Both the position numbers and the translations under genes were made by a program. Below are positions 34,197 through 39,819 of a stretch of 64,000 bases of DNA, piece by piece (position 1 is the first letter of the stretch; every line of letters begins with the position of its first letter). The DNA comes from Frankia sp. RB7 (GTDB lineage: Bacteria > Pseudomonadota > Alphaproteobacteria > Rhizobiales > Xanthobacteraceae), in NCBI GenBank assembly GCA_030403585.1, contig JAUEPE010000016.1, positions 62,001-126,000 on the forward strand, in the 5' to 3' direction. The notes beneath the pieces are model-generated. The model saw nothing but the letters and a program-made list of their open reading frames with translations, made no database searches and was not told where the DNA came from.

Positions 34197-34718
34197 TCAA
34201 TCTGCCGGCTGGAACGTGCAGTCTGCCCCACTGCCGTCCTTCTGCCTGATGGCATTGGGGTCGATCGTGCAGCTCAGCTTGCTCAGGCTCTCGAAATTCG
34301 ATCCCGCCGCGCCGTCGGGCGGAATGCCGGCCAGAGCCTCCGTCGCGAAGATCTCGTTGGCCGTGGAGCCGTTCACGTTCCTGACCTTCTTGCCGAAGGT
34401 GACCTCGCAGCTGCGCAAGGTGATGTCGACATTGCTGGTGCGGCAGACGATTCTATCAGCGGTCACCACGATCGGCTTTTTGTAGGGGATGTCGGCGTTG
34501 GCGGCGAACAGCATCGCCATCGCCTTCTTCTCGGCGCCCGACAGAATCGGCGACAGCGGCGCGATCACGCCCGCCAGCGCCAGCGCCGTGGAGCCCGAGA
34601 TTTTCGAAGGCGTGGCACCGGATGCACCCGCGACATGGGAGGCGCCGATAGGAACAATTACAAGTGCAAGTGCGATGCAGGCCCAAATCTTGAATTGAGA
34701 CCAAGTCGTGGATTCCAT
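34197..34718 (-). CDS. secreted protein, full-length copy of a partially duplicated gene
   Basis: A 173-residue exported protein of unknown function. After the signal (IWACIALALVIVPIGAS) it has a conserved segment (SGATPSKISGSTALALAGVI, then LFAANADIPY) and a C-terminal part with four Cys that could form disulfides. The start at 34718 follows GGGGGAG, 20 bases after the TIR gene stop. Its first 24 codons are richer in A/T and unlike the start of the truncated copy at 36691-36903, as if supplied by the inserted TIR module. Confidence 0.75.
   Translation of the reverse strand: MESTTWSQFKIWACIALALVIVPIGASHVAGASGATPSKISGSTALALAGVIAPLSPILSGAEKKAMAMLFAANADIPYKKPIVVTADRIVCRTSNVDITLRSCEVTFGKKVRNVNGSTANEIFATEALAGIPPDGAAGSNFESLSKLSCTIDPNAIRQKDGSGADCTFQPAD
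34482..34646. repeat. direct repeat, left copy (165 bp), inside the secreted-protein gene
   Basis: Nearly identical to 36697-36855, with a few substitutions and a 6-bp indel in CATCGCCATCGCC. Both copies encode the same segment of the secreted protein (GASHVAGA to NADIPY), in the same orientation, flanking the TIR-STAND gene. Confidence 0.95.
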
Positions 34719-34738
34719 TCGCGTCACTCCCCCCGTCA

Positions 34739-36613
34739 CTATGCCTCTCGGTAACCCTCAGGTGTCTGATAAGTGGCAATCAGAATCTGCTGAAGCCGTT
34801 CGTCGATCTCTTTGAGCGCCACTGGATCTCGCGCGATATCAACGTCCTCCCTTTTTATCTGAAGAGCGCGACTCTCCAGTTGAAGGTCAAAGAAATCCTT
34901 TCGCTCTATCTTTGAAAGGAGTTCAAGAGCTTCAGTCCAATTTCGCTGCTTAATTGCCTGACGAGACTGCAATTGCCAAGCATCATACTGGCGCCCTGCG
35001 GCCAACGCCAATTCGACCGTTTCCGGAAGAAGTTCCGAAACCCCGTACTCGATGGCAATCGCACACTCGAGGAGGGCTATGCTTACATTGACCGCAGCGA
35101 TGATAAGAGCATCGATTAGATCCGCCCCTAACTGACCATCGTTCATCTTTTTCTCGATCAGCGCCCTCGCTCGTGCAAATAACGTTGTCAACTCGACGTT
35201 TGAGTCTCTCCTGATTCTTGCGGAGACAACTTCAGGAGTGCGGTAGTAGCCACCCTCTCCAAGCTCGATGAGTGAGTAATCGAGCAGATCCCAGACATTG
35301 TCGATGATTTGCTTGTGATCGGGCTGGCTCATCAATTCCGATAACAATGTAAGCGGCAATTTTGGAAACCATCCGAGTGCAGTGAGAATATTTTTTTGAA
35401 GGGGTTCGAGCAATCCGCTGGAAAAAATGGCCTCTAGTGTCTTGTCCTGGAAAGCGTATATGGGCTCCGGATTTAGGTTAATCGAGTCGAAACTCTTGCC
35501 GCTATTCGTAAGATAAGCGACATAGTGAGCTGTAGCCGGATGCCCCCGCACCTTCTTCGAGATGGCGTTGGCAGCTTCAATGTTGAAGTATCGACTGTCA
35601 GTCTTCTTGCTCAATATGTACTGAATGTTTTGCTCGGATAGTTCACCGATTTCGTATTGTCGAACATTTGGAAGATCCGCGAGAGCCTCGGCGGCCAATC
35701 TCCTTTCCGACACATAGATGATGCGGAGGTTTCGTACTTGGTTGGACTGGCGAAATAGTGAGTTCAACCAAGGTTTGAGATTTCTGGCGCGATCTCGAAG
35801 GCCCCACCTAGTACGAAGCACAACGACTTGATTTAGTTCTGCCCAGTGGCCGAGAGACTTCAAGATCGTCAAGGCCTGCTTGTCTGTTTCAAGAGTTTGG
35901 AATGCAGCTATTTGACGCTCTATTTCCTCCTTTGACATTGTTCCGTCCAAGTCCTCCTTAAGACGAAGGTGAATATCGACTGCATCGGCCATGTCGGGCA
36001 GATCAAAGAAAGGTCCAGCATGTCTCATTGCCGGAAAGGAGTCGCGTATGATTTCTCTAGCAAAAGTGGATCGACCCATGCCGGGAATGCCAGTCAGCAA
36101 CAAATGCTGGATCGGAGCGCCGACCTGCGTAGGAGCGGACAATATATCTAGTTCGACCCGGCGGCTTAGGTCTTCGCGACCGACGAACACCTCCTTTACT
36201 TTCTCGGCGATCGATTGACGTTGAAGATATAGAATATTTCTCGCAATATCGTTCACTCGATATTGCGGTGTTGTTGTCATGTAGCGCTGCATCCAAGCAG
36301 GAAGAGTTTTGTAACTCTCTCCGTCAATGGGGCAAACCAAGATCTTGGCTTGTGTGTTTTCAATAACATTGAGTCTCGCCAAATTTTTCTCGAAGTTCAC
36401 CCAGGTTTTTTGCGAGTGGGGCGAGTGAAACAGAACGAAAATGGATGAGTTGCGTACGCCGTGTTCCATCGCGTCCAATGTGGCCTCGCCCGGCTCGATT
36501 GAACGGATGTCGTAGAACGCGCTCGAAACGTCGAGCCTTGCGTAAATCTTTTCGACGAAAGCCTTGTCCTCGCTGGCATGGGAAAGGAATATCTGTCCGG
36601 TAACGGCTGCCAT
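34739..36613 (-). CDS. TIR-STAND NTPase (bacterial NLR-like defence protein)
   Basis: A 624-residue protein. Residues 5-130 form a TIR domain (IFLSHASEDKAFVEKIY, DIRSIEPGE), with WVNFE placing Glu75 where TIR NADases have their catalytic Glu. FVGRED (144-149) starts a STAND/NB-ARC-like ATPase with P-loop GIPGMGRST (175-183, Arg replacing the usual Lys). A winged-helix-like part and helical C-terminal repeats follow. Such proteins sense phage components, oligomerise and deplete NAD+ to abort infection; that role is inferred. G+C is clearly below the neighbours. The start at 36613 follows GAGGG. The gene lies between direct repeats, indicating acquisition. Confidence 0.85.
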   Translation of the reverse strand: MAAVTGQIFLSHASEDKAFVEKIYARLDVSSAFYDIRSIEPGEATLDAMEHGVRNSSIFVLFHSPHSQKTWVNFEKNLARLNVIENTQAKILVCPIDGESYKTLPAWMQRYMTTTPQYRVNDIARNILYLQRQSIAEKVKEVFVGREDLSRRVELDILSAPTQVGAPIQHLLLTGIPGMGRSTFAREIIRDSFPAMRHAGPFFDLPDMADAVDIHLRLKEDLDGTMSKEEIERQIAAFQTLETDKQALTILKSLGHWAELNQVVVLRTRWGLRDRARNLKPWLNSLFRQSNQVRNLRIIYVSERRLAAEALADLPNVRQYEIGELSEQNIQYILSKKTDSRYFNIEAANAISKKVRGHPATAHYVAYLTNSGKSFDSINLNPEPIYAFQDKTLEAIFSSGLLEPLQKNILTALGWFPKLPLTLLSELMSQPDHKQIIDNVWDLLDYSLIELGEGGYYRTPEVVSARIRRDSNVELTTLFARARALIEKKMNDGQLGADLIDALIIAAVNVSIALLECAIAIEYGVSELLPETVELALAAGRQYDAWQLQSRQAIKQRNWTEALELLSKIERKDFFDLQLESRALQIKREDVDIARDPVALKEIDERLQQILIATYQTPEGYREA

Positions 36614-36690
36614 GATCCCTCGCGGTTGATGCTTGTCTGCTTGTCGGGTGAACTGGAGACGAATCAGTGGTCGCGTTGCCTTGGGGATCC

Positions 36691-36903
36691 TCACCAGTAG
36701 GGGATGTCGGCGTTGGCGGCGAACAGCATCGCCTTCTTCTCGGCACCCGAGAGGATCGGCGACAGCGGCGCGATCACGCCCGCCAGCGCCAGCGCGGTGG
36801 AACCCGAGACTTTCGAAGGCGTGGCACCCGACGCACCCGCGACATGGGAGGCGCCGGCCACGAGCATGGCACCGGCGAGGCAGGCCGATATCGTGAGTTT
36901 CAT
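36691..36903 (-). pseudogene. truncated 5' copy of the secreted-protein gene
   Basis: A 70-codon stub, MKLTISACLAGAMLVAGASH to NADIPYW-stop, matching the N-terminal half of the 34197-34718 product after its signal region. Homology stops exactly after the PY codons, where TIR-module sequence begins and a TGA follows. The start at 36903 has a good GAGGAG site and a normal signal peptide, so this is probably the original 5' end of the host gene. A short secreted peptide could still be made. Confidence 0.75.
36697..36855. repeat. direct repeat, right copy (159 bp)
   Basis: Partner of 34482-34646 in the same orientation. The two bracket about 2.05 kb holding the TIR-STAND gene; recombination between them would excise that gene and rebuild one intact secreted-protein gene. 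Confidence 0.95.
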
Positions 36904-37135
36904 GGGCGTCTCTCCTCGAAGGTCACGGCTTCGCCGTCGCGAAAGCGCGTTGAGCCTATGACAGATGGCCCATCTGGGGGAAGGCTGCATTCACAGCTTC
37001 AAGGAGAGTCGCGTGCGGAGAAGTCGCCCGATGTCGGTCGCGGCCGAACCGACGGCGGCCGCGTCGGACGGACGCGGCCGGGTATTCATGTCTGGCACAG
37101 GCGGACGATCGCACGCCTGCGCAAGCGCGGATAGA

Positions 37136-39148: not shown

Positions 39149-39547
39149 CTACTTCTTCCCGGCGGTCTTCTTCGTTGTCTTCTTGGCCGCCTTCTTCTTC
39201 TTCGCTGCCTTCTGGGCGATCAGATAGGCCTCGACCTTCCTGGAAGAATGGCCGGCGGCGGCGACGGCGGCCTTCAGCTTGGCCGGCGTGATCTTGAACT
39301 TCTTCGACCAGTAGCGGACTTCATAGGCTTCGCTGAGCGCGATCCGGCTCTTGTCGGCGGCGCGGTGCTTCTGCAGCTTGATGTAGTCCTCGACCTTCCT
39401 GGCGGAGTGGCCGACTTTCTTGACGGCGTATTTCAGCTTGGCCGGCGTCACCTTGAATTTCTTCGACCAATAGGCGACTTCGTATTTTTCGGTGAGCGCA
39501 ATCAGCTTGCGGTCTGCCCCGCCCCGCTTGGTCTTGTCGTCGGCCAT
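39149..39547 (-). CDS. tandem DUF3606 protein with lysine-rich histone H1-like tail
   Basis: A 132-residue, very basic protein. Two copies of the DUF3606 unit (LTEKYEVAYWSKKFKVTPAKLKYAVKKVGHSARKVEDYI and the matching ALSEAYEV...SSRKVEAYL) are followed by a tail of Lys/Ala/Thr repeats (AAKKKKAAKKTTKKTAGKK). The tail resembles bacterial H1-like proteins, suggesting DNA or RNA binding, perhaps nucleoid compaction under stress. The start at 39547 fits the first repeat. Function not known for the family. Confidence 0.85.
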   Translation of the reverse strand: MADDKTKRGGADRKLIALTEKYEVAYWSKKFKVTPAKLKYAVKKVGHSARKVEDYIKLQKHRAADKSRIALSEAYEVRYWSKKFKITPAKLKAAVAAAGHSSRKVEAYLIAQKAAKKKKAAKKTTKKTAGKK

Positions 39548-39819
39548 GCTTCTCTCCTGCCCTGAATCGGGTGGAGCCAGTCTAGCATGCAATCCGATTT
39601 TGCACGCAAGCGACAGGCCGCGCGGCGAATGCGCCAGGCGGCCGATTTGTCGCGTCAGGTCAAATGGTTGCGGAGCGCGACCCCGCCTCATCGCTGCAAG
39701 GTCGTTCTACTGTGCATGGGGTTGTTTTCGACTTTTTTGCCATTCGCGCGTCCGTGATGGAACCTAATGCCGGCTGGTGCGACTTATCCATGACACGGGG
39801 AAACACGTGCGAGGCAGTC

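What the first reader, a model, noticed from the sequence alone, without database searches (positions are those of the whole stretch)
34482..36855. Defence-type gene bracketed by direct repeats of a host gene
The TIR-STAND gene and about 2.05 kb of lower-G+C DNA lie between two same-orientation copies (165 and 159 bp) of one segment of a secreted-protein gene. Recombination between them would remove the module and rebuild an intact host gene. That makes a simple, transposase-free way to gain and lose a defence gene. No recombinase or terminal inverted repeats are visible.
Basis: partly seen in the sequence, partly recalled or inferred. Interest (0 to 1): 0.85.

Follow-up and report, generated by a model that had tools for sequence, protein, structure and literature searches.

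The report
Defence gene scarred into host gene
In one Bradyrhizobium genome a foreign antiviral-type (TIR-STAND) gene sits between a truncated and a complete copy of a host secreted-protein gene; this looks like the scar of a one-time acquisition by homology-assisted recombination, a known kind of event, and not like a demonstrated reversible switch.

Summary
Two same-orientation copies (34482-34647 and 36697-36856, 92% identical) of part of a secreted-protein gene flank about 2.05 kb of low-G+C DNA (50% against 63%) holding one TIR-STAND gene. The insertion is derived: relatives carry one gene at this locus and no TIR gene, and B. campsiandrae aligns across the empty site in one 3.47-kb block.

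The copies are not a target-site duplication. The left one is the complete gene, but its first ~90 bp, abutting the TIR stop codon, are a foreign 5'-end allele otherwise seen in the japonicum/liaoningense group; its body is native-type. The right one is the local 5'-end allele, cut off mid-gene. Seven of their eight substitutions are silent, so they probably diverged mostly while both were functional.

Best explanation: one-sided homologous recombination. Donor DNA with TIR beside a variant 5' end was joined by homology on one side and illegitimately (or by single crossover of a circle) on the other. The host gene survived with a new signal peptide, probably in an operon behind TIR.

Excision through the repeats is possible in principle, but no sampled genome shows it. 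Gain is supported; "gain and lose" is not.

The parts
34197..34718 (-). Complete secreted-protein gene (left copy), 173 aa, B-type signal peptide MESTTWSQFKIWACI..., native-type body
   Evidence: no Pfam or NCBIfam family
34482..34647 (-). Left copy of the direct repeat, inside the complete gene
34637..34655 (-). Interval in which the left copy switches from B-type 5' end to native-type (A-clade) body
   Evidence: diagnostic sites
34648..34739 (-). B-type 5' end with ribosome-binding site, abutting the TIR stop codon; first 68 coding bases 46% G+C
34739..36613 (-). TIR-STAND gene, 624 aa, shortened TPR region, 49.6% G+C
36614..36696 (-). TIR leader, no match elsewhere in 266 genus genomes beyond chance; ends at the non-homologous joint 36696/36697
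36697..36856 (-). Right copy of the direct repeat, with an in-frame 6-nt deletion
36691..36903 (-). Truncated secreted-protein gene (right copy), A-type signal peptide MKLTISACLAGAM..., stop just past the joint
36952..36965 (-). Conserved leader element TCTGTCATAGGCTC, the only copy in the window; probable part of the host promoter or leader

Best explanation
A foreign TIR-STAND gene was acquired by recombination with homology on one side. Shown: a single-copy gene in relatives, a foreign insert present in this genome only, a B-type 5' end fused to the TIR stop codon, a native-type body behind it, and a joint at 36696/36697 where host-gene sequence meets sequence of no known homology. Inferred: the incoming DNA carried the TIR gene directly upstream of a variant (B-type) 5' end of the host gene; it was joined to the resident gene by homology (at 34637-34655 or further left), and its other end was joined without homology inside the resident A-type gene (homology-facilitated illegitimate recombination), or it was a circle with a piece of the gene that entered by one crossover. 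Either leaves a partial same-orientation duplication as a scar. The host gene stayed intact with a new signal peptide. Since its conserved leader element now lies only before the truncated copy, TIR and the complete gene are probably transcribed together from the host promoter (inferred). That the protein senses phage and depletes NAD+ is general knowledge of TIR-STAND proteins, not tested here.
For: Single copy and no TIR in 57 relative loci, and one contiguous 3472-bp alignment of the joined flanks to B. campsiandrae L035; 156 of 266 genus genomes have the gene, only this one has two real copies. The left 5' end scores 53 on average to B-type relatives, 18 to A-type and 19 for shuffles, while the right 5' end scores 91 to A-type and 40 to B-type. 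The left copy switches from B to A states between 34655 and 34637. L and R differ by 8 substitutions, 7 silent (P about 0.001-0.002 without constraint), so they look like alleles of two strains. E. coli single crossovers leave 109-950-bp target duplications (PMC3240628); HFIR was proposed for module insertion in Vibrio (PMC5361080).
Against: No donor with TIR beside a B-type gene was found, so the incoming molecule is hypothetical. The repeat is short (8 substitutions), and the right copy carries most derived changes, so some decay after insertion is possible. A B-type 5' end with an A-type body needs either a crossover exactly at the repeat edge or an unsampled mosaic donor. HFIR and single crossover cannot be told apart from the present anatomy.
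Confidence: 0.66

Rival explanations
1. Reversible, transposase-free defence cassette: recombination between the 160-bp repeats regularly removes the TIR module and rebuilds the host gene, and the module is regained by the same route.
For: Repeats in the same orientation with identical runs of 41, 37 and 24 bp, and an in-frame intact gene after crossing over.
Against: Only 1 of 266 genus genomes has the module. No relative carries the right copy's 2-codon deletion. Genes found next to the gene in other strains are ordinary ones by Pfam (PFK, ABC transporter, kinases, DUF2254). TIR homologues elsewhere lack host-gene repeats. The empty sites are explained as the ancestral state.
Confidence: 0.12
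2. Duplication first: the host gene was duplicated in tandem, a TIR gene entered between the copies, and the upstream copy was truncated.
For: L and R are closer to each other (8/160) than to any sampled relative (14 or more).
Against: No genus genome has two complete genes. The left 5' end is of another type than the right one and of all close relatives.
Confidence: 0.12
3. Relic of an integrative element that targets this gene and carries a stand-in 5' end, with its recombinase lost or supplied in trans.
For: The stand-in 5' end adjoins the TIR stop codon and has a similar low G+C (46%; mostly 59-62% in B-type relatives), as if carried together for long.
Against: No recombinase, no terminal repeats, no second integration, no relative of the TIR gene in the viral contigs, and homologues on other replicons have other surroundings.
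Confidence: 0.08

Closest known systems
Homology-facilitated illegitimate recombination (HFIR) and single-crossover integration with partial target duplication (PMC3240628; Acinetobacter, Pneumococcus, P. stutzeri work cited there)
   Same: Foreign DNA joined by homology on one side; in E. coli single crossovers duplicated 109-950 bp of the target
   Different: Inferred from a natural genome, donor unknown; cargo is a defence-type gene and the host gene kept a complete copy with a swapped signal peptide
Module insertion in Vibrio cholerae T6SS clusters (PMC5361080)
   Same: New genes inserted next to a homologous anchor leaving a displaced remnant of the old gene; HFIR proposed
   Different: There effector-immunity pairs and arrays; here one TIR-STAND gene at a secreted-protein gene, one event
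Variable segments flanked by direct repeats (PMC2884548)
   Same: 10-18% of variable segments in the species studied are flanked by direct repeats; HFIR offered as an explanation of dimorphic loci
   Different: Most of those repeats are under 30 bp; here about 160 bp of coding sequence
TIR-NLR / TIR-STAND proteins (PADLOC PDLC03015; PDB 9m0n, 824 aa)
   Same: TIR domain followed by a nucleotide-binding domain; match over residues 8-331
   Different: Lacks about 240 residues of TPR region against its nearest homologue; P-loop lysine is arginine as in its two nearest homologues

Membership tests
HFIR or single-crossover insertion scar | Foreign segment absent from the orthologous site of relatives | tested here: met
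   57 of 57 loci with one gene and no TIR; contiguous empty-site alignment in L035
HFIR or single-crossover insertion scar | One end joined within homology (allele switch inside homologous sequence) | tested here: met
   B-to-A switch between 34655 and 34637 in the left copy
HFIR or single-crossover insertion scar | Other end joined without homology | tested here: inconclusive
   36614-36696 has no match beyond chance in 266 genomes, but the donor sequence is unknown
HFIR or single-crossover insertion scar | Donor molecule known, RecA dependence | not testable with these tools
   Needs a donor genome and experiment
Transposon or integrative element | Recombinase gene, terminal repeats or target-site duplication | tested here: not met
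   One gene only; no terminal inverted repeats; the copies are different alleles, not a duplicated target
TIR-NLR (TIR-STAND) | TIR domain with catalytic glutamate | tested here: met
   TIR_2 E = 4.6e-15; E75 in WVNFE invariant in three homologues; catalytic role assigned from general knowledge
TIR-NLR (TIR-STAND) | STAND-type nucleotide-binding domain | tested here: met
   phmmer to 9m0n residues 8-331, E = 7e-13; AAA_16 only below its Pfam cut-off; P-loop K to R
TIR-NLR (TIR-STAND) | C-terminal repeat (TPR) sensor region | tested here: inconclusive
   About 240 residues of this region missing against G558; C-terminus kept
TIR-NLR (TIR-STAND) | Anti-phage activity | not testable with these tools
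   Needs an experiment

The most novel reading that the evidence does not exclude
The TIR gene and the stand-in 5' end form a portable unit that enters this host gene by homology alone, keeps the gene working under a swapped signal peptide, borrows its promoter, and can later leave precisely through the 160-bp repeats: a recombinase-free defence cassette.
Probability: 0.08. Interest if true: 0.65.

Novelty: new member of a known kind. Interest (0 to 1): 0.36.

Why it matters
It is a readable example of how a single immune-type gene can enter a chromosome without an integrase: one joint is an allele switch and the other a cut through the gene. The insert supplied a new start for the gene it broke, so acquisition cost the host little and may have placed the newcomer under a host promoter. 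If the repeats also allow loss, it would be a minimal model for turnover of isolated defence genes; that part is untested.

Tried and rejected
Target-site duplication by a transposase: rejected, the copies have different 5' ends and differ mainly at silent sites. Old paralogues: rejected, relatives have one gene. A defence hot spot at this site: ten proteins encoded near the gene in relatives were tested with Pfam and none is annotated as defence (not scanned with PADLOC). The same arrangement around TIR homologues on four other replicons: no host-gene repeats (the repeats on the Acetobacter plasmid are probably the IS5 copies annotated there). A viral carrier: no relative of the TIR protein in the viral contigs. 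The double match in G236: two adjacent, frame-shifted pieces of one gene. Promoter and terminator patterns in the module: about chance level. No structure was predicted; the sequence match to a solved TIR-NLR was judged enough.

Full report
Observation. The repeats are as described: 34482-34647 and 36697-36856, 152/166 identical with one 6-nt gap, no third copy in the window. The DNA between has 50.1% G+C against 63.4% for the window. All genes concerned lie on the minus strand. In reading order they are a 5' fragment of a secreted-protein gene (36903 to the stop at 36691), the TIR gene (36613-34739, 624 aa), and a complete secreted-protein gene (34718-34197), followed by a carboxylesterase-type gene. 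Upstream lies a gene with the Pro-kumamolisin and subtilase domains, called S53-type peptidase here.

The locus in relatives. The secreted-protein gene was found in 156 of 266 genus genomes, and apart from G236 only the window's genome has two matches; the two matches in G236 are adjacent pieces of one broken gene. In 57 loci from named genomes, each has one copy, none has TIR, and 48 have the esterase gene within 400 bp. Where the S53-type gene is still adjacent (L033, L035, L038, L040), no insert is present. Joining the window flanks at one repeat copy gives a sequence that aligns to B. campsiandrae (L035) in one block of 3472 bp at 88%. The insert is therefore best read as a gain. Close TIR relatives are absent from the genus: the only two other matches are 25-28% identical.

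The two 5' ends. The gene body is conserved in the genus but the signal peptides come in several types. The right, truncated copy has the A-type end (MKLTISACLAG...), as in the closest relatives. The left copy has a B-type end (MESTTWSQFKIWACI...), seen otherwise in japonicum, liaoningense, barranii and related strains, where an amine-oxidase gene is usually upstream. Local alignment scores of the left 92 bp are 53 on average to B-type, 18 to A-type and 19 for shuffles. The B-type match runs up to 34739, where the TIR stop codon begins. At sites that separate A from B, the left copy is B at 34655 and A at 34637 and at all later diagnostic sites. So the left copy is a mosaic whose switch lies at the edge of the repeat. 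This explains why the repeat ends there: it is where the two alleles cease to be alike, not the end of a duplicated target.

Age and order. The copies differ by 8 substitutions, 7 of them silent, plus an in-frame 2-codon gap. Without constraint, at least 7 of 8 silent changes has a probability of about 0.001-0.002. Most of the divergence therefore seems to predate the truncation, which points to alleles of two strains brought together. They are nevertheless closer to each other (8/160) than to any sampled relative (14 or more), and most derived changes are on the right copy. The sample is small, so some later decay is not excluded.

Mechanism. One homologous and one apparently non-homologous joint is the signature of homology-facilitated illegitimate recombination. 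A single crossover with a circle that carries a piece of the gene would give the same anatomy. In E. coli conjugation experiments, single crossovers that duplicated 109-950 bp of the target were commoner than true HFIR (PMC3240628). HFIR was proposed for module insertion in Vibrio T6SS clusters (PMC5361080). A comparison of genomes within species found 10-18% of variable segments flanked by direct repeats, mostly under 30 bp, and offered homology-assisted illegitimate recombination for dimorphic loci (PMC2884548). The present case fits this known class; the step from anatomy to mechanism is inference.

Expression. The leader element TCTGTCATAGGCTC is found, with up to three mismatches, in 29 of the 71 compared gene sequences, in A- and B-type strains; in the window it occurs once, before the truncated copy. 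TIR starts about 78 bp after the truncated frame ends, and the complete gene starts 20 bp after the TIR stop. One transcript from the host promoter is likely but untested. Promoter and terminator patterns in the module are at chance level.

The TIR protein. It matches TIR_2 and PADLOC TIR-NLR and, over residues 8-331, the 824-aa protein of structure 9m0n. The nearest homologues found are in another family of the order (G558, 49% over 510 residues) and on an Acetobacter plasmid (41%). Against G558 it lacks about 240 residues of the TPR-like region, in frame, while the C-terminus is kept. The usual P-loop lysine is arginine here and in both homologues. A 75%-identical remnant of the C-terminal part lies in a low-G+C patch in G824, another genus of the family.

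Gain without a recombinase is supported. Reversible gain and loss is possible in sequence but has no evidence. The finding is a good example of a known kind of event.

Noticed in passing
34739-36613: The TIR-STAND protein lacks about 240 residues of the TPR-like region, in frame, against its closest homologue, but keeps the same C-terminal end.
   Followed up: partly
36071-36098 (P-loop of the TIR gene, approximate): Walker A reads GIPGMGRST, with arginine for the usual lysine; also arginine in the G558 and Acetobacter homologues.
   Followed up: partly
L107:8588-9032 (genome G824): A remnant with 75% identity to the C-terminal part of the TIR protein lies alone in a 51% G+C patch of another genus of the family.
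   Followed up: partly
L009-L088, secreted-protein gene: The same core gene carries several unrelated-looking signal peptides and upstream neighbours across the genus, suggesting repeated exchange of its 5' end.
   Followed up: partly
L036, L034, L037, L040, L047, L084, upstream of the gene: Different ordinary genes (PFK, ABC transporter, histidine kinases, DUF2254, adenylate cyclase with AAA and TPR) occupy the stretch upstream of the A-type gene in different strains.
   Followed up: partly
39149-39691: Small lysine- and alanine-rich protein with an internal repeat (39225-39370 and 39384-39529, 74% identical) and a histone-like tail, conserved in many relatives.
   Followed up: no
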